A DNA stretch of 6,943 nucleotides from Anaerolineales bacterium (GTDB lineage Bacteria; Chloroflexota; Anaerolineae; Anaerolineales; UBA4823). This document shows positions 1-6,943 of the stretch, one piece after another (positions within the stretch are counted from its first letter, which is position 1; each line of letters begins with the position of its first letter). The stretch spans positions 1 through 6,943 of the forward strand of contig JAOAHK010000136.1 of NCBI GenBank assembly GCA_026415275.1, given 5' to 3'. The notes under the pieces are model-generated. The model saw only the letters and a list, made by a program, of their open reading frames with translations, did no database searches and was not told the origin of the DNA. The translations under genes were made by a program, and so were the position numbers.

Positions 1-847
1 CCTTCGTCCTGTATACTGCCCAGCCGACAAAACCGCCCATTGGGGTGCTCTGTCCACGCCTCGAGGAAGGTCCCCATAGGTCTACCCACCGCGTCGATTG
101 GTCAACCAGGCGCACTTGATCAGCCAATGCATAAAGGGAAGCAAGTTCTTCAGCCGACCTACGTTCGGCACCGTTATGTTGGCGAGCAAGGTCATCCATG
201 CGTTCCAATAAGCGGCGGAAGATCACCGAAAAATCGGGAGCCTTTACCAGCGACTCCGCATCGATCAGCCGCGTGGGGGATAGAAAGTGTACAGTAATTT
301 CTCCATCTAACACCAAGCGAGCTGCGAAGTTCTGGGCATCCTCCCAGCGGATCGGCAAGTGCTGCGGGTGAACTACGCGCTCATTCTCGGCTAAGATGAC
401 CGCAGTTTCCCCTCTCAACGGGTGAAGCGCTTGAATCGAACGGATTTCAAACTTCCCCCTCCCAGGCCCGACACCCACCTCGCCCATCGCCTCGGCAGCT
501 AAGACAAAATAGGGCAAAAAGCGGTAGCCTTCACCGAAGAGAGTGAGGGTGAAGTGAAATTCTTGGTCGGGTTCCATAGTATCCACAGGGGGTTGCGGGC
601 CGACCAAACTATAGACGCGGCGCACAGTGCCCGGGGAGGATTCGGCGGCCAACAACCAGCATGCCGGACACACAGCGGCATGTTCGGGGCTGGGCTTTTG
701 TGTGCGGTAGGTTTCGGGGCAAACGGCGCGCAGCATCACTTGGGCAAGGGCATCGCGCAGGCGTTCAGCGCCTTGGTATCTGCCTAACCGAATGGGTTGT
801 TTCGCCCGAGCGGTAAAACGGAGATGAGTAAAGGTTAATGAAGTCAT
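1..847 (-). CDS. cas6: CRISPR pre-crRNA processing endoribonuclease Cas6 (3' end beyond the window)
   Basis: The frame is open from the ATG at 847 to the left edge: 282 residues, no stop, so the C-terminus is missing. Cas6 cuts the CRISPR transcript in its repeats and usually stays bound to the 3' handle of the crRNA. Visible family features are an N-terminal ferredoxin-like start (TFTHLRFTARA, residues 5-15), a cysteine group (C43, then CPAC at 60-63), the stretch LFGEGYRFLPYFVLAAEAMG (103-122) followed by a glycine-rich loop GVGPGRGKF (125-133), and PTRLIDAESLVKAPDF (191-206). The C-terminal glycine-rich motif MGGFVGWAVY (270-279) is typical of PF10040-type Cas6. The catalytic histidine cannot be assigned by eye. 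An in-frame ATG at 943 was rejected because the family N-terminus begins at 847, where GAGGA (862-858) lies 10 bases upstream. GC is about 58%, above the neighbouring cas genes. The gene follows cas3 after a gap, not at the operon head. Confidence 0.9.
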   Translation of the reverse strand, partial: MTSLTFTHLRFTARAKQPIRLGRYQGAERLRDALAQVMLRAVCPETYRTQKPSPEHAAVCPACWLLAAESSPGTVRRVYSLVGPQPPVDTMEPDQEFHFTLTLFGEGYRFLPYFVLAAEAMGEVGVGPGRGKFEIRSIQALHPLRGETAVILAENERVVHPQHLPIRWEDAQNFAARLVLDGEITVHFLSPTRLIDAESLVKAPDFSVIFRRLLERMDDLARQHNGAERRSAEELASLYALADQVRLVDQSTRWVDLWGPSSRRGQSTPMGGFVGWAVYRTK

Positions 848-1084: not shown

Positions 1085-3466
1085 TTAGTCCCAATCTTCA
1101 TTATACTCAGGATTTTCGAAAGACAATCCTAATTCAGACGTGTAGGGAGTCATCACAACGGGCGGAAGACGCTGGTCTCCCGCTTTGATCAAACCCTGAT
1201 TCGCTAGCATGTGATATTGTCCCCACCTTAGGGGAACCAAAAGCTCCTCAGCCGTAATCGGCTCGCTTTCTAGGTTTTGAACATATTCCTCAAAAAGGCA
1301 AGCGGGCAGCACCTCGATGCCATCAAAAAGACGATGGAATTGGTTTTCGATGCGGTTGACCGTATGAAATGGACGCAACGTATCGAGACAAGCCGCTTCG
1401 AATTCCCTTACAGATTTCCGGTATTCCTTCTCCCATTGCTCGGCAACCCGGTCAGCATACACCTCATCCAACCAATGGTTAATTTGGTCTTCATCCAAGA
1501 CTTTCCCATCGTGGGAACGGAGGATGCATAAGGCCCTTTGAATTAGCTCCGAGCTGTAAATCCGTTGCCCGTCTGAGGGCTCGCTGTAAACATTGACTTC
1601 AGCTTGCGTTCCTCTCCGTCCAGAACGATTTACCCGCCCAAAGCGTTGGACGAGCGCTTCTAAGGGCGCTGGATCGCTAAATAGGACATCCAAATCGATA
1701 TCTAGACTGACTTCTACAACCTGCGTAGAAACCAACACAACCGATTTCCGATTTGAACTCCCTTTGCCAAACAGGTCTTGGATCATTTTCTCCTTATTCA
1801 TCCGGTCGCGTTGGTGAAAGCGGCCGTGGATGAGGAGAACTTGTGTAGATAGGGGAAGATGAGTGGATAAAATTTGATAGGCTTGTTGAGCGCGAGCTAC
1901 GGTATTGCAGACAACCAATACGGATTTTCCAGCTTCTGCCTCGTTAATAACGATCGGAAGATTGTCTAGGAGGTCTCCCTCACGACAGCGCACGAGATGG
2001 CGTTGAAACTGTCGATAAAGAGCTGGCTCTGCGGTGATGACGCTGATATCCCCTAGCGCTTCGCAAATCCATTGACGGATCAGGGTCGGAAAGGTAGCAG
2101 ACATGACAAAAAAGCGCGCCTGGTAATTCTCCCGCAGGTACTGAATCATTCTAAGAATCATCGCCAAGCGGTTGACTTCGTAAGCATGAATTTCGTCCAT
2201 GATGAATAAAGCCTGATAGTAGTCAACAAGTTGGGCTTCATACCCCTTTAGGCGATAGATAGCCTTGAGCATCTGGTAGGGGCTAAAGACTCGAATGGGT
2301 GGATAATTCAATTCAGCCAAGTTTCTCATCCAGCGTGCGGTAGAGGCCGCCCGTTCGGGGTCATACTCTCTTTCCATTAAGTTGCGATATAGCGCTAACA
2401 AACCCCGACCATGCTGAAGTCCCACGGTAAACTCCCCAAAGAGGTAGCTCAGCCGCCGCTTCATGGCATTCATACTAGCTTGGTATGGCAAGGTATAAAA
2501 CAAACGCGCAGCCTTCGGTTGATTTGCTGCCCAGAGCAAGGCAGCTTCGGTTTTTCCGCTCCCCGTCGGGGCGATTAACATCGCAGAACCTTTCACTTGG
2601 GCCGCTTTGTCTTGATGAGCATATAGCTTCTGAGGCTCTAATTGACATCGTTGTAGAATCGCTTCTGGGTGAATCTGCAACGTCTGCAATTCGTTCACAT
2701 GAGCAGAGGCGCTGTGATCCGACTGAATGACAGAACCACGCAAAATTGTGAGGGCAGTCAAAAGGACGGATGGTTCTTTTTCATTGCCAAGAGCTTTTGC
2801 CCATCCTTGATAGCGAGAGAGACAGTTTCGGACAAACGATGCACCATCATTCAGAAACTGGCTAACAGCTTGGTCTTGACTCACCAATTGAAGCGGGCGA
2901 ACCCCCACGGATTCCAAATGGAGTTGCCCGAGCCACATTGAGCCACAAACATCCAGCCATCTCCACAAAGAGCGCAAGGTTTGTTCAGGAAATTGGCGTA
3001 TCAGCTCATCCAGATCATCTTCCTCATTCTCATCAAAAGTGGGGTAGAGTTCCTTCAGCTCCTTTGGTTCTCGATGATGAGAGACAATGGCGGCAACTAG
3101 CCACAACTTCTGGTCTTCCCGAAATCCATCGACAAACCAAGATAGAAATGGCAGAGAAAAAACCTCGTGGCGATGAGCACCCCAAATCGCTTTAGCATTT
3201 TTATCCTTCCGTAAGATTCCTTGAAAAGCTGGATGAGCTTTGCCGAAGTCATGCAAAAAGAGCGACCAATAAAGCAGATGCCACAGATCCTCTCTGCCTA
3301 ACTCAGTCGGCAAGGTAGGGCGAAGGCGGACAAGCTCCGCAAAGCGCAGTAAGACCAGCCAAGTATGAGCAGCTAGGCTTTCCGGCTCGCCGCCTGCCCC
3401 TTTCTCAGTACTTTTTGCCCACAAATGTTCTAACCAATCCGGATATAGACTTGGACGCTCAATCAT
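1085..3466 (-). CDS. cas3: CRISPR-associated HD nuclease-helicase Cas3
   Basis: Cas3 is recruited by the target-bound Cascade, nicks the displaced strand with its HD domain and unwinds and degrades DNA using ATP. Numbering is from the ATG at 3466 (793 residues). The HD nuclease comes first: H34, H72-D73 (in LHDFGKAHPAFQ), H98/H100 and H130-H131 (SHHRE). A linker with QSDHSAS at about 248-254 follows. The superfamily 2 helicase shows Walker A APTGSGKT (299-306), DEIH (424-427), MSAT (455-458), then STQVVEVSLDID (580-591) and QRFGRVNR (607-614). All key residues are intact, so it should be active, and the size is normal for a fused Cas3. The start is uncertain: TTG 3475, GTG 3469 and ATG 3466 are in frame. 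ATG is chosen; it overlaps the cas5 stop by 8 bases and has no strong ribosome site, which suggests translational coupling. Confidence 0.97.
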   Translation of the reverse strand: MIERPSLYPDWLEHLWAKSTEKGAGGEPESLAAHTWLVLLRFAELVRLRPTLPTELGREDLWHLLYWSLFLHDFGKAHPAFQGILRKDKNAKAIWGAHRHEVFSLPFLSWFVDGFREDQKLWLVAAIVSHHREPKELKELYPTFDENEEDDLDELIRQFPEQTLRSLWRWLDVCGSMWLGQLHLESVGVRPLQLVSQDQAVSQFLNDGASFVRNCLSRYQGWAKALGNEKEPSVLLTALTILRGSVIQSDHSASAHVNELQTLQIHPEAILQRCQLEPQKLYAHQDKAAQVKGSAMLIAPTGSGKTEAALLWAANQPKAARLFYTLPYQASMNAMKRRLSYLFGEFTVGLQHGRGLLALYRNLMEREYDPERAASTARWMRNLAELNYPPIRVFSPYQMLKAIYRLKGYEAQLVDYYQALFIMDEIHAYEVNRLAMILRMIQYLRENYQARFFVMSATFPTLIRQWICEALGDISVITAEPALYRQFQRHLVRCREGDLLDNLPIVINEAEAGKSVLVVCNTVARAQQAYQILSTHLPLSTQVLLIHGRFHQRDRMNKEKMIQDLFGKGSSNRKSVVLVSTQVVEVSLDIDLDVLFSDPAPLEALVQRFGRVNRSGRRGTQAEVNVYSEPSDGQRIYSSELIQRALCILRSHDGKVLDEDQINHWLDEVYADRVAEQWEKEYRKSVREFEAACLDTLRPFHTVNRIENQFHRLFDGIEVLPACLFEEYVQNLESEPITAEELLVPLRWGQYHMLANQGLIKAGDQRLPPVVMTPYTSELGLSFENPEYNEDWD

Positions 3467-4184
3467 CACCCGCAAAAGAATGAAAGACCAATCCTAAATG
3501 CTTACCTTTCACCTCTGGCGATTGCGGATCGACCCAAAAGCTTGGCGGCTGAACATTCCCAAATAAGAGCAACTTTTCTGGAAAATGGATGCGATCGTGA
3601 ACAATAAAGTAGCGTTCGAACGTCGGCCGTCTGCCTTGAGTGTAATCAATCCAACGTGGCATTAGCACGGCATAGCCTCGATTGGTAAAACTGTTGGAGC
3701 TGTAAGGCAAAAGCGTATGTTCGATATAGGCATAATCTGACTTCTGAAGCTCCACGACAGAAACATCGCTGTAGGTGAACAAATCTTGGGAGCGCCCAAG
3801 TATGACCGGGTATTTGGGACTGCGAAAAGCATCAATCCAATCCGGACGATCAAGATAAAGGATAAGGCGCGGTTGGAAGAGGAGGGTGCGCTGAAAAGGA
3901 TTTATGTTACCCTCAAGCTCCTTTGGGTAAGAAGAACCGGGGATCTTCCCAGAAGTAGGTACTAAGAGGATAATATGTTCTAAATCATCCACTTTGGCTG
4001 TGTAGCTAAAGTGATAGGCAAAATGCACCTCACGGGGATCAAACCATTCTCCCAATGCCGAGGCGATATGCCCGTAAATGGTCGCCGGAGGAGGCATCTC
4101 GTAGGTAGGGTGAATCTGATACATAAAGTGCGGATAGCGGAAGGATGTGGTGATTCCCTCCGCAATCACCTTTAGAACCTGCAT
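3459..4184 (-). CDS. cas5: Type I-B Cascade subunit Cas5
   Basis: The 241-residue protein has the Cas5 hallmark near its N-terminus: after MQVLKVIAEGITTSFRYPHF comes PTYEMPPPATIYGHIASALG (26-45), the proline-rich turn and helix of the RAMP-fold Cas5 family. In type I complexes Cas5 caps the 5' handle of the crRNA and joins Cas7 to Cas8. As a separate Cas6 is present, Cas5 is expected to be structural rather than a processing nuclease. The start is firm: AGGAGG (4195-4190) lies 5 bases before the ATG and overlaps the stop codon of cas7. The gene ends within the start region of cas3. The subtype label Cas5t (Tneap type) fits the neighbours but is inferred from context. Confidence 0.93.
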   Translation of the reverse strand: MQVLKVIAEGITTSFRYPHFMYQIHPTYEMPPPATIYGHIASALGEWFDPREVHFAYHFSYTAKVDDLEHIILLVPTSGKIPGSSYPKELEGNINPFQRTLLFQPRLILYLDRPDWIDAFRSPKYPVILGRSQDLFTYSDVSVVELQKSDYAYIEHTLLPYSSNSFTNRGYAVLMPRWIDYTQGRRPTFERYFIVHDRIHFPEKLLLFGNVQPPSFWVDPQSPEVKGKHLGLVFHSFAGDD

Positions 4185-4193
4185 CGCTTCCTC

Positions 4194-5252
4194 CTAATCC
4201 AACCAACTCTCCTGTTGGCGCAAATCTTGGATGAACTCCCGGAATGCTAGACGAGGATGGTTGACCTTCACATTGTATACTTGACTAAATTCCTCAAAGC
4301 GAGCGCGCTCCTCATCAAGATAACCCTTCGTCCATCCCACATAAACGGGAGAGAGAATTTCGTCTTTGAAAACATTCATTACTTGTTCAAATGCCTCATG
4401 GTTGACCCGTGGCTGCCCTTTTGCATCGGCACTAACAATGTGGTTGAAGATATGGTTGCCGCCTTTAGTGACCGCCATGAAGACAATCACCGGTGAAACG
4501 TCAGTATAGTGCAATGCCAATTTTGCGCCCCCTTCTAAGAGAGTCAAACCCTCAAACAATGCACTAATGCGCTGAATGCGCTCCTCCTTGGAAAGGCGGT
4601 AGCACTTTTGGTCCTCAAGATGTTCTAGCCCAGCCTCTGCTGCCTGCTTCTTACGCTCCTCATCCAAATTGCGATAACCGGTCTTCTGGACATAGGTGAA
4701 AGTGCCGCAAGCAGCTAGATTTAGGGAGAACAATCCCTTTAGGGTCGTACGGTAGAACTGGTGTTCAAAGGGAACAGGATCCCCCTCTTGGCGTGCCATA
4801 ACGCCGAAGTCCTGCGTCAAGGATACCGGACTGAGGGAAACCAGCGTACTAACACGAAACGGTGATACTCTTGTGACTGTATCCGTCGTAGGAGTCTCGG
4901 CCGCCCGACTGGTATCCGCTTCGCGAGCAGCTCTGGCAGAGGCTCGGGTGGATTGGGCACGCATATAGCCAAAAAGGTCGTCGTCCCAGTACTTTATCGG
5001 ATTGCTGTCCGTGTAAGCGACTTTCTCCTCACGATAAACTGGGGCAGCTTTCCAACCAATGCCTGCCTTTTCTAGGGTTGTTCTCAACCAGTAGCGAAAG
5101 GCTTGGGCGGAAACATAAGGGTAGTAACCATCTTTGGTCTTGATCACCTTCACCCCACTGGTGTTGTCAGTGCGTTCGCCAGGGATACTGCCCAAGTTGT
5201 TAAGCGCCGAGGCAGGGGCATCAATGAGAAATAAGCCAGTTACAAAAGCCAT
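4194..5252 (-). CDS. cas7: Type I-B Cascade backbone subunit Cas7 (Cst2/DevR family)
   Basis: The protein has 352 residues from the ATG at 5252. The opening (FVTGLFLIDAPASALNNLG, residues 3-21), then YYPYVSAQAFRYWLRTTL (43-60) and SPFRVSTLVSL (130-140) are characteristic of the Cst2/DevR branch of Cas7. Several copies would polymerise along the crRNA spacer and form the Cascade backbone. Residues 98-128 form a loop rich in Ala, Arg, Thr and Ser, of low complexity, probably a flexible arm. An upstream in-frame ATG (5348) would add 32 residues that lie inside the end of cas8; it is rejected because AAGGAG (5267-5262) sits 9 bases before 5252 and the family begins at MAFVTGLF. Cas7 follows cas8 after 28 bases and is followed by cas5 after 9. 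Confidence 0.96.
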   Translation of the reverse strand: MAFVTGLFLIDAPASALNNLGSIPGERTDNTSGVKVIKTKDGYYPYVSAQAFRYWLRTTLEKAGIGWKAAPVYREEKVAYTDSNPIKYWDDDLFGYMRAQSTRASARAAREADTSRAAETPTTDTVTRVSPFRVSTLVSLSPVSLTQDFGVMARQEGDPVPFEHQFYRTTLKGLFSLNLAACGTFTYVQKTGYRNLDEERKKQAAEAGLEHLEDQKCYRLSKEERIQRISALFEGLTLLEGGAKLALHYTDVSPVIVFMAVTKGGNHIFNHIVSADAKGQPRVNHEAFEQVMNVFKDEILSPVYVGWTKGYLDEERARFEEFSQVYNVKVNHPRLAFREFIQDLRQQESWLD

Positions 5253-5280: not shown

Positions 5281-5643
5281 TTACATAGCGGTTTCTTGTT
5301 CCAGAGGAATCTCGGTGAGAATTTCCTCATGTGTACCAAACCATCCAAGTTGATAAAGACGCTCGATCATGCGGATGAGCACCAGGTCGCGCGCCAACCG
5401 CCAATCGCCTGTGGGAATTTCCAAACCTTCCTCAAAGACTTGGACATAGGAGTCGAAGGACAAGATTGGCGATTTTCCCCGTCTTACTGCGGCAAGATTG
5501 GCTTTCAGCAGTATGTTGCGAAAGAAGTCATAGCGGTTTTGGGTGAAAAACTCGCGGAAGAAACGCGTGTCGTTCTCTGCATTGACGTATTCGGCGAGAG
5601 TATCACCTAAATTGCGGATTTTTTCTATTCTTTCTTTATCCAT
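5281..5643 (-). CDS. cas11: Probable Cas11 small subunit, made from an internal start in cas8
   Basis: Inside cas8, codon 370 is an ATG (5643) preceded by the consensus ribosome site AGGAGGA, with 9 bases between AGGAGG and the ATG. It lies in frame and would give a 120-residue product identical to the C-terminus of Cas8. The product looks almost wholly helical, starting MDKERIEKIRNLGDTLAEYV, which is the expected size and fold for the Cascade small subunit that lines the belly of the complex and contacts the target strands. No separate cas11 gene is visible in the window. For type I-B, I-C and I-D systems it is known that the small subunit is translated from within the large-subunit gene. 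The ribosome site and spacing are seen directly; the function is inferred from that precedent. Confidence 0.72.
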   Translation of the reverse strand: MDKERIEKIRNLGDTLAEYVNAENDTRFFREFFTQNRYDFFRNILLKANLAAVRRGKSPILSFDSYVQVFEEGLEIPTGDWRLARDLVLIRMIERLYQLGWFGTHEEILTEIPLEQETAM

Positions 5644-6750
5644 GTTCAGTATCCTCCTCAAGAATTCATTGGGTATTTTCCAATTCACAATCTCAATTTC
5701 ATCTCGAAATGAATATTCGCTTCTGGGATCTTGGGTATCCTTGGTCCTAACCGGTATCCTCAAAAAGTACGTGCGGATGAAGCGGTTAACATTCTCAGGA
5801 AGAGAGAATAAATCTTCAAAAAGATAATTTTTCTTCGGGATAAATGTCTCTGAGACTACTCCTTTCTTTATAGAGGGTTTTTGCCATGCCCGCTGCACAA
5901 TTTTTGCCCACTCAGTGCGATAACCGGCCGATTGCATGACGCGTAAAAAGGCAACCGTCTGCATTGGAAGATGATAAATATCGAGCGCAGGACCCTGACC
6001 ACTATTGCTGAAATGGTAAGCGGTTATTGAGAATGGGCTCTCTTGCTCTACTGCCTCTTTTTGGGATTGCGTAGCCTCAAGAAGCACTTCGATCAGGAGG
6101 GTGCGCTCCAATCGAGGCATATCTAAGGTGAATTTTTCACTTTTCTGGCGTGCCAATTGGATTGCCATGCGGTTTTGTTCTAGAAATTTTCGGGCGAAAT
6201 AAATCATGATCTCTGGATTATCGGAATGAACCGCTAACAACTTGCCCGCAATTTTGACACAACCAAGAGGGAGAGCTTGAATAGCTAATAAAACTTCACC
6301 TGAGACCGGCAGTCCTGCGTCGCCGTAGGGGAAAAAGTTGATTACATCCTCGCCAGTCAAAAGAGGAATGTGTTGGCGATAGGCACGACCAGGCGATAGT
6401 TTCCCTGTTTCATCGACGTTCAAGGATTGATCAGCAATGGGCAGACCCAGATAAACATCTACCTCATCCCGCTTGGGAACCTCGGAGGAGAAGGCTTTCA
6501 GAACTTTTTGGGCATAGATTGCCTTCTTCTCCGGGGTTTTACTATATCCTGGTTGGGTATATCCAGCGTTCATCGTGAAAACGATCGACCGGTAGCCAGT
6601 CATACAAGGATCAGTGTAAATCTCCGCCAGATAATCTGCGATCGTGTGCAAATCCGAAATTTCTAATTCCTCAGGAGCATTCTTACCACAGAAAGCCGTT
6701 ATTGTAGCGAGCCCGACATCCACAAAAGGATGTCCACAAAACCTAATCAT
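5281..6750 (-). CDS. cas8b1: Type I-B Cascade large subunit Cas8b1 (Cst1-like)
   Basis: The 489-residue protein sits directly before cas7/cst2, the place of the large subunit, which recognises the PAM and helps recruit Cas3. The N-terminus GHPFVDVGLATITAFCG (6-22) and the helical C-terminus with GDWRLARDLVLIRMIERLYQ (448-467) resemble the Cst1/Cas8 family of Tneap-type systems. Large subunits diverge fast, so the call rests partly on the neighbours. Only four cysteines occur (C5, C21, C49, C164) and no CxxC pair, although some Cas8a1/Cst1 relatives have a CxxC-CxxC region. The start at 6750 is preceded by AAGGAGGTGAT (6762-6752), nearly a full match to the 16S tail. A longer frame starting at 6834 lies inside the regulator gene and is rejected. 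The last 120 codons probably also encode a separately translated small subunit. Sampled lines average only about 41-45% GC. Confidence 0.9.
   Translation of the reverse strand: MIRFCGHPFVDVGLATITAFCGKNAPEELEISDLHTIADYLAEIYTDPCMTGYRSIVFTMNAGYTQPGYSKTPEKKAIYAQKVLKAFSSEVPKRDEVDVYLGLPIADQSLNVDETGKLSPGRAYRQHIPLLTGEDVINFFPYGDAGLPVSGEVLLAIQALPLGCVKIAGKLLAVHSDNPEIMIYFARKFLEQNRMAIQLARQKSEKFTLDMPRLERTLLIEVLLEATQSQKEAVEQESPFSITAYHFSNSGQGPALDIYHLPMQTVAFLRVMQSAGYRTEWAKIVQRAWQKPSIKKGVVSETFIPKKNYLFEDLFSLPENVNRFIRTYFLRIPVRTKDTQDPRSEYSFRDEIEIVNWKIPNEFLRRILNMDKERIEKIRNLGDTLAEYVNAENDTRFFREFFTQNRYDFFRNILLKANLAAVRRGKSPILSFDSYVQVFEEGLEIPTGDWRLARDLVLIRMIERLYQLGWFGTHEEILTEIPLEQETAM
5653..5658 (-). promoter_or_regulatory. 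Internal Shine-Dalgarno site for Cas11
   Basis: AGGAGG reads as two consecutive AGG arginine codons (R365-R366 of Cas8), 9 bases before ATG 5643. It is as good as the sites in front of cas5 and cas7. Two adjacent AGG codons placed exactly at ribosome-site distance from an in-frame ATG are unlikely to be chance. Confidence 0.72.
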
Positions 6751-6943
6751 AATCACCTCCTTGTCCCTGATGATACAACTTGTACGTCCTCTCGGCCTCT
6801 TCTCGCATCCTCTCCCGCAGCCAGTCAGGGGCAAGCACCTCCACGTCGGCTCCCCAACCGCGGATCCAGGGCAGCATTTCGGTCGGTTCGGCGATCTGCG
6901 CCCGCCAGAGCAGGCTTCCGTCCTCTAAGACGGAAACCTGCTC
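6743..6943 (-). CDS. WYL-type transcriptional regulator, C-terminal end (5' part beyond the window)
   Basis: The frame is open from the right edge to a TAG at 6745-6743 and gives the last 66 residues. The pattern W-R-A-Q-I, then EMLPWIRGWGADVEVLAPDW (residues 23-42), LRERMREEAER and a final tyrosine-containing tail matches the end (WCX region) of helix-turn-helix/WYL regulators. Such proteins often sit beside CRISPR-Cas operons, where they are thought to sense a ligand and control cas expression. The DNA-binding and WYL domains lie outside the window. The stop overlaps the cas8 start by 8 bases, so regulator and cas genes are surely co-transcribed, and self-regulation of the operon is likely. 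GC is about 64% over 6781-6943, well above cas8 next door. Confidence 0.82.
   Translation of the reverse strand, partial: EQVSVLEDGSLLWRAQIAEPTEMLPWIRGWGADVEVLAPDWLRERMREEAERTYKLYHQGQGGDYD
6752..6762 (-). promoter_or_regulatory. Extended Shine-Dalgarno site of cas8, inside the regulator gene
   Basis: AAGGAGGTGAT is close to the complete complement of the 16S rRNA 3' tail. AGGAGG ends 5 bases before the cas8 ATG. It decides the cas8 start at 6750 and lies within the last codons of the WYL gene, encoding its terminal Gln-Gly-Gly-Asp residues. Confidence 0.85.

What the first reader, a model, noticed from the sequence alone, without database searches (positions are those of the whole stretch)
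5281..5658. Hidden Cas11 small subunit encoded by an internal start in cas8
The sequence shows AGGAGG, 9 bases of spacing and an in-frame ATG at codon 370 of cas8, giving a helical 120-residue C-terminal product. No separate small-subunit gene is visible. Internal translation of Cas11 from the large-subunit gene is established for types I-B, I-C and I-D, but annotation pipelines miss it. Here the signal is as strong as the main gene starts.
Basis: partly seen in the sequence, partly recalled or inferred. Interest (0 to 1): 0.7.

Follow-up and report, generated by a model that had tools for sequence, protein, structure and literature searches.

The report
Hidden Cas11 start inside cas8b1
Inside this bacterium's large CRISPR gene cas8 lies a second ribosome-binding site and start codon, kept in most of 93 related genes, which would likely let the one gene also make the small subunit Cas11; the same device is already known from related CRISPR systems.

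Summary
In detail: AGGAGG (5658-5653, minus strand), 9 bases, then an in-frame ATG (5643-5641) at codon 370 of a 489-codon type I-B cas8b1 (Cst1) gene, giving 120 residues. Codon 370 is ATG in 80, GTG in 11, TTG in 1, ATT in 1. The site is the strongest ribosome-binding stretch of 474 columns, far beyond synonymous shuffles, and the least structured of 451. Residue 366 changes at least 19 times on the tree but the third base of its codon only twice; the median for equally variable columns is 40. So an RNA signal, not only the peptide, is conserved. The product is a helical domain that starts at a domain boundary. No second cas11-like copy was found in 31 cas8b1-bearing genomes. This is a well-supported new member of a known kind: internal translation of Cas11 is reported for other I-B, I-C and I-D systems, and was proposed, but not shown in the native host, for Thermotoga maritima cas8b1. 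Expression and entry into the complex are untested; the Cas11 fold match is suggestive only; 15 of 93 relatives have a weak ribosome site.

The parts
5653..5658 (-). internal ribosome-binding site AGGAGG (codons 365-366 of cas8, Arg-Arg)
   Evidence: sequence; conserved over 93 genes
5644..5652 (-). 9-base spacer
   Evidence: sequence
5641..5643 (-). internal start codon ATG, codon 370 of cas8
   Evidence: ATG 80, GTG 11, TTG 1, ATT 1 of 93 genes
5281..5643 (-). predicted cas11b frame, 120 residues plus stop, nested in cas8
   Evidence: translation; helical model pLDDT 86.4; only PADLOC's Cas8b C-terminus matches it, no NCBIfam or Pfam model
5281..6750 (-). cas8b1/cst1, Cascade large subunit, 489 residues
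   Evidence: TIGR01908 59.4 bits, cut-off 19.4; PADLOC Cas8b E 1.7e-181
4194..5252 (-). cas7 (Cst2/DevR)
   Evidence: TIGR02585 E 1.2e-55
3459..4184 (-). cas5b
   Evidence: TIGR01895 E 8e-28, just over its cut-off; PADLOC Cas5b E 4.3e-57
1085..3475 (-). cas3 (HD and helicase)
   Evidence: TIGR01587 E 8.6e-77, TIGR01596 E 9.3e-21
2..847 (-). cas6, cut by the contig end
   Evidence: PF10040 E 9.4e-9; PADLOC Cas6 E 2.1e-50
6743..6943 (-). C-terminal end of a WYL/WCX regulator, cut by the contig end
   Evidence: PF25583 WCX E 1.3e-15

Best explanation
The 3' end of this cas8b1 gene carries a conserved ribosome-binding site and start codon at codon 370, from which ribosomes likely make the Cascade small subunit Cas11b separately from full-length Cas8. 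Steps: (1) one cas8-cas7-cas5-cas3-cas6 message is made (inferred from gene order). (2) Ribosomes start at codon 1 for Cas8 (489 residues) and independently at codon 370 for Cas11b (120 residues) (predicted; the signal and its conservation are shown). (3) Cas11b folds as the same helical bundle that ends Cas8 (predicted model). (4) Several Cas11b copies line up with the Cas8 C-terminal domain as the inner belly of Cascade and hold the displaced non-target strand while the R-loop forms (inferred from solved I-B and I-C complexes).
For: 93 genes, <=92% identical to one another: codon 370 is ATG 80, GTG 11, TTG 1, ATT 1; 11 of 11 valines there are GTG, joint log10 P -5.0. Anti-SD pairing peaks at columns 371, 370, 372 of 474; mean at 370 is -10.8 against -5.7 (SD 0.33, lowest of 500 -6.6) for synonymous shuffles. 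Among start-type codons, pairing <= -10 is found at 56 of 92 codons 370 and at 23 of 568 other internal ATGs. Codon 366: Arg is AGG in 35 of 36 (9.9% elsewhere), Lys AAG in 33 of 34, Glu GAG in 23 of 23; at least 19 residue changes but 2 third-base changes on the tree. Least structured RNA of 451 columns at 372, 371, 370. 89 of 120 listed short homologues in protein databases begin exactly here. Residue 370 lies in the loop before the C-terminal helical bundle. No second cas11-like copy in 31 of 31 genomes tested.
Against: No expression data. 15 of 93 genes have weak predicted pairing (above -8), one of them (L058) hardly any site, and one gene (L038) has ATT, a poor start. Taken singly, only 34 of 93 genes beat their shuffles at p<0.05. 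In the set thinned to <=50% identity (19 genes) column 370 is third, behind 371 and 372. The internal start of T. maritima cas8b1 gave no Cas11 in E. coli (PMC13199841). Foldseek found no significant match for the bundle.
Confidence: 0.9

Rival explanations
1. The Arg-Arg and Met are kept only because the Cas8 protein needs them; the ribosome-site look is a by-product and nothing is translated from it.
For: Peptides can mimic such sites: column 446, after a conserved FEEG motif, has the next strongest pairing outside the 369-372 peak (-8.5). In the window's gene alone p is only 0.018.
Against: The residues over the site vary (20 different triplets) while the third base of codon 366 hardly changes (2 changes against a median of 40); non-Met codons at 370 are GTG or TTG in 12 of 13; Met461, also mostly Met, shows neither pattern.
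Confidence: 0.03
2. The site is a ribosome pause or an RNA-processing element that helps Cas8 fold at its domain boundary, not a start.
For: It lies exactly at the boundary of the C-terminal bundle in the model, where a pause could help folding.
Against: A pause needs no start codon 8-9 bases downstream, yet 92 of 93 genes keep ATG, GTG or TTG, and RNA structure is weakest at that codon.
Confidence: 0.03
3. The small subunit is made by proteolytic clipping of Cas8 rather than by internal translation.
For: Short Cas8b fragments of Clostridium thermocellum and Methanococcus maripaludis were once read as fragmentation (as told in PMC11899642, passage).
Against: Clipping predicts no selection on third bases or on start codons.
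Confidence: 0.02
4. The internal product is made but is not a Cascade subunit: it acts alone, for example as a regulator of Cas8.
For: The structural match to Cas11 is suggestive only. Gene-within-gene products that block the full-length protein exist elsewhere (Rpn, PMC10327210; start of the abstract seen in a search listing).
Against: In the I-B and I-C complexes I read about the product is the Cascade small subunit (PMC11096372, PMC7684278; passages). In T. maritima I-B1, Cas8b1 did not co-purify without Cas11 (PMC13199841).
Confidence: 0.02

Closest known systems
Thermotoga maritima type I-B1 cas8b1 / Cas11 (PMC13199841; abstract and passages seen)
   Same: Same Cas8b1 class by name; gene set cas8b1, cas7, cas5, cas3, cas6; Cas11 placed at an internal start of cas8b1; no separate cas11 gene.
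   Different: There the internal start was silent in E. coli, blamed on a poor ribosome site or start codon, and native use is said to be unproven. Here the site is strong and conserved in its own branch. I could not compare the two sequences.
Synechocystis PCC 6714 type I-B Cas8b / Cas11b (PMC11096372, PDB 8H67, 8IP0; passages seen)
   Same: Small subunit encoded at the 3' end of cas8b by an internal ribosome-binding site; helical bundle identical to the Cas8b C-terminus; three copies in the complex.
Haloferax volcanii Cas8b / Cas11b (PMC11899642; passages seen)
   Same: In-frame start inside cas8b; changing Met545 removed the small product.
   Different: Archaeal; its ribosome site (GGATG) is weak; product about 29 kDa, twice as large.
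Desulfovibrio vulgaris type I-C Cas8c / Cas11c (PMC7684278, PDB 7KHA; passages seen)

Membership tests
Type I-B1 (Cas8b1/Cst1) CRISPR-Cas | Cas8b1/Cst1 large subunit | tested here: met
   TIGR01908 59.4 bits against cut-off 19.4, over profile positions 22-192 of 308; PADLOC Cas8b E 1.7e-181
Type I-B1 (Cas8b1/Cst1) CRISPR-Cas | Cst2/DevR Cas7, Cas5t and Cas3 in one operon | tested here: met
   TIGR02585, TIGR01895, TIGR01587 over their cut-offs
Type I-B1 (Cas8b1/Cst1) CRISPR-Cas | adaptation genes and CRISPR array | not tested
   the contig ends inside cas6; cas1, cas2 and cas4 follow in the relative on plasmid pHAU01
Cas11 made by internal translation of cas8 | in-frame internal start codon with ribosome site, conserved at nucleotide level | tested here: met
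Cas11 made by internal translation of cas8 | product equals the C-terminal helical domain of Cas8, about 110-135 residues | tested here: met
   120 residues; 111-134 in relatives; helical model; starts at a helix boundary
Cas11 made by internal translation of cas8 | no separate cas11 gene | tested here: inconclusive
   one cas11-like match, in cas8, in 31 of 31 genomes tested; Cse2 in 0 of 3; but the own assembly is 67% complete and a diverged cas11 could be missed
Cas11 made by internal translation of cas8 | Cas11 fold | tested here: inconclusive
Cas11 made by internal translation of cas8 | small product made in the cell and bound in Cascade | not testable with these tools
   needs expression, ribosome profiling or mass spectrometry

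The most novel reading that the evidence does not exclude
Across this whole cas8b1 branch, whose record titles name several phyla, the internal ribosome site is itself the element under selection and the Cas8 protein bends to it: residues 365-367 swap between Arg-Arg-Ile, Arg-Lys-Val, Gln-Glu-Val and others chiefly in ways that keep a purine run and a GG core 8-9 bases before codon 370. The supply of Cas11, not the peptide, would then set this part of the large subunit.
Probability: 0.5. Interest if true: 0.5.

Novelty: new member of a known kind. Interest (0 to 1): 0.42.

Why it matters
Type I-B is described as the most abundant CRISPR subtype, and its Cas8b1 branch had a proposed but natively undemonstrated internal Cas11 (PMC13199841). 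The codon-level conservation here is strong evolutionary evidence that the internal start is used, and it names the likely start in 92 further genes. The 120-residue product is not named as Cas11 by the family libraries tried. Anyone rebuilding such a complex in another host should supply Cas11 or keep codons 365-370 as they are; silent recoding of cas8 would likely abolish the small subunit.

Tried and rejected
Amino-acid covariation as proof: Arg366 with Ile367, or Lys/Glu366 with Val367, in 83 of 93 genes (28 + 55), Fisher p 2e-15. On a tree the independent-pairs sign test gave a median p of 0.25, so relatedness alone could explain it. I do not rely on it; the third-base result stands without it. 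That tree is a quick one (simple model, quick search).

Sequence search of the PDB found no relative of Cas8: none at E<=1 for the single protein, one chance-like row at E 0.51 for the profile. The long 16S-tail pattern was in 0 of 5 genomes; the short one, GGATCACCTCCTTTC, in 20 of 61, among them G005 of the same genus but not the own genome. A normal anti-SD in this organism is thus inferred. TIGR01908 over 400 Chloroflexota genomes matched 23, all already positive, so no new Cas8b1 branch came in. In the plasmid collection only one record matched. McBride et al. 2020 is not held; what I say of it comes through other papers.

Data dropped: of 110 sequences (109 loci and the window) 5 lacked the needed part of cas8 (L007, L079, L105, L106, L109), leaving 105; 12 rows over 92% identical were dropped, leaving 93. 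The loci were found with two peptide patterns from the C-terminal domain, so cas8 genes lacking that domain could not be found there. Alignment A2 used the window and 60 of the 92 other genes, all with ATG at 370. 31 of 38 cas8-positive genomes were searched for a second cas11; G015, G152, G183, G274, G287, G297 and G416 were left out.

Full report
WHAT IS THERE. The window is one whole contig, G000:C39, of a fragmented assembly (2.7 Mb in 480 contigs, 67% complete). Its closest named relative by Cas8 is an Anaerolineales MAG (L008, 84% identical). On the minus strand lies a type I-B effector operon: the end of a WYL/WCX regulator, cas8b1, cas7 (Cst2/DevR), cas5b, cas3 and a cut cas6. Within cas8, AGGAGG at 5658-5653 is followed after 9 bases by ATG 5643-5641, codon 370 of 489; the remaining frame of 120 residues ends with the stop at 5283-5281. 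Coordinates and description of the finding are right.

IS IT MORE THAN CHANCE IN THIS GENE. Pairing with a standard anti-SD tail is -12.2 kcal/mol, about equal to cas8's own start (-12.3) and stronger than cas7, cas5 and cas6 in the same scoring window. It is the best position inside this gene, tied with its neighbour codon 369. Shuffling synonymous codons within the gene reaches it with p = 0.018. That alone is only suggestive.

THE COMPARATIVE TEST. Relatives came from genomes near the window's (7 of 61 positive), the species-genome collection (72 loci) and 400 Chloroflexota genomes (32 positive). Of 110 sequences, 5 lacked the needed part and 12 were near-identical, leaving 93 genes; the 92 others are 36-83% identical to the window's. 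Record titles name Chloroflexi, Deltaproteobacteria, Bacillota-type bacteria, Armatimonadetes, Nitrospirae, an archaeon and others; nearly all are metagenome assemblies. Codon 370 is ATG in 80, GTG in 11, TTG in 1 and ATT in 1. Where the residue is Val the codon is GTG in 11 of 11, although GTG makes up only 22-57% of the other Val codons in those genes (joint log10 P -5.0). Met461 is a built-in control: ATG in 77 of 93, but its other 16 codons are a mixture (CTG 4, GTT 2, TTG 2, GTG 1 and seven others) and pairing upstream is weak (mean -5.3).

The ribosome site. Averaged over the genes, pairing is strongest at columns 371, 370 and 372 of 474 (-11.3, -10.8, -10.4; mean of columns -3.5, SD 1.5). 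Shuffles that keep the protein and the gene's codon usage average -5.7 at 370 (SD 0.33; lowest of 500, -6.6). 89 of 93 genes lie below their own shuffle mean, 34 of 93 singly at p<0.05. In 41 genes at <=60% identity the same three columns lead; in 19 genes at <=50%, 371 and 372 lead and 370 is third. Of start-type codons, pairing <= -10 occurs at 56 of 92 codons 370, 23 of 568 other internal ATGs and 48 of 1779 GTG/TTG codons, codons within two of 370 counted apart. The next region, column 446 (-8.5), follows a conserved FEEG motif and is probably a peptide by-product, a warning that peptide alone can mimic a site (the motif is read). 15 of 93 genes have weak pairing (above -8); most still show a purine run such as GAAAGG.

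Separating RNA from protein. The residues over the site vary: RKV 27, RRI 20, QEV 10, KEV 7 and 16 other triplets. Codon choice does not: at codon 366 Arg is AGG in 35 of 36 (9.9% elsewhere in these genes), Lys AAG in 33 of 34 (49%), Glu GAG in 23 of 23 (47%). On a quick tree built without these columns, residue 366 changes at least 19 times while its third base changes twice. Among 291 columns with at least 15 residue changes the median is 40 third-base changes; the next lowest, 20, is codon 365, also in the site. The only columns with as few or fewer changes than 366 are codon 370 and columns 281, 357, 450 and 470, which are Trp in the window's protein, a one-codon residue. An Arg-Ile / Lys-Val pairing of residues 366-367 is strong in raw counts but not significant once relatedness is allowed for.

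Accessibility. In 42-base windows, columns 372, 371 and 370 have the weakest predicted RNA structure of 451, as expected of a start site. This is not independent of base composition.

Gene finders. A profile search with the 120-residue piece found 148 proteins of suitable length, of which 120 were listed; 89 of the 120 begin exactly at residue 370. Many come from short contigs where the cas8 frame may be cut. This shows that start-scoring gene finders tend to choose this codon, not that it is used. Whether some are true stand-alone cas11 genes could not be read.

SEPARATE CAS11. In 31 of 31 genomes tested, of 38 positive, there is exactly one match to the 120-residue profile, and it lies in cas8 (in two of them, G110 and G330, in a broken cas8). 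No stand-alone homologue was found among open frames of 60 residues or more in the 110 sequences then held; the short hits were pieces of cas8. Cse2 matched 0 of 3 genomes, the own one and two of its genus. The gene table of plasmid pHAU01 lists one cst1 gene and no cas11 between a DeoR-type regulator and cas4; that table is stated to be incomplete.

HOW IT WORKS. Shown: the signal, its conservation at nucleotide level, no second copy in the genomes tested. Predicted: separate translation, the fold and the domain boundary. Inferred from relatives: Cas11b copies line the belly of Cascade with the Cas8 C-terminal domain and steady the non-target strand. Synechocystis I-B has three copies (PMC11096372), I-C two (PMC7684278). 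A need for more Cas11 than Cas8 would explain an internal site as strong as the main start; that last step is my inference, also made for Haloferax (PMC11899642).

WHAT IS KNOWN. Makarova et al. 2011 already suggested a small-subunit-like region at the C-terminus of Cas8 (PMC3150331, passages). Internal initiation is reported for I-D, I-C and I-B (PMC10212523, PMC7684278, PMC11096372, PMC11899642; passages). For Cas8b1 the closest report is T. maritima (PMC13199841, abstract and passages): there the internal start gave no Cas11 in E. coli and native proof was said to be still required. Searches for Cas8b1 with Cas11 (4 papers), Shine-Dalgarno with Cas11, Cas8 and start codon (1 paper) and Chloroflexi with Cas11 and type I-B (0 papers) showed no codon-level conservation test of the Cas8b1 branch in the titles, abstract starts and passages that I saw. 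The library lacks most subscription papers, McBride et al. 2020 among them, which may hold one.

VERDICT. Ordinary in kind, very well supported in this case: a new member of a known kind. Confidence 0.9 that codon 370 is a used start that makes Cas11b.

Noticed in passing
L098 (G110:C149), cas8b1: One TAG and one TAA interrupt the cas8b1 frame upstream, while the nested cas11 part, with its ribosome site and ATG, is open.
   Followed up: partly
L106 (G330:C367), within 2480-2760: The cas8b1 frame breaks shortly after codon 370, so both Cas8 and the nested Cas11 would be damaged; real decay or assembly error cannot be told apart.
   Followed up: partly
L038, codon 370: The only one of 93 genes with ATT at the internal start; two GTG codons lie just upstream after the purine run.
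   Followed up: no
5281-6750 (-): This Cas8b1 matches the family named CXXC_CXXC (TIGR01908) but, as read from its sequence, has no CXXC motif.
   Followed up: no
3459-3475 (-): cas5 and cas3 overlap by 17 bases if cas3 starts at TTG 3475; its predicted ribosome site is weak in one scoring window, so coupling or a later start is possible.
   Followed up: no
L008:13675-14658: After cas6 in the 84% relative lies a CARF-family (Csx1-like) gene that reads in two separate frames, perhaps broken.
   Followed up: no
proteins P0201, P0203, P0213, P0234: Proteins of 120-126 residues that start at residue 370, on contigs of about 8-21 kb: possible stand-alone cas11 genes, or broken cas8; the contigs could not be read here.
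   Followed up: no
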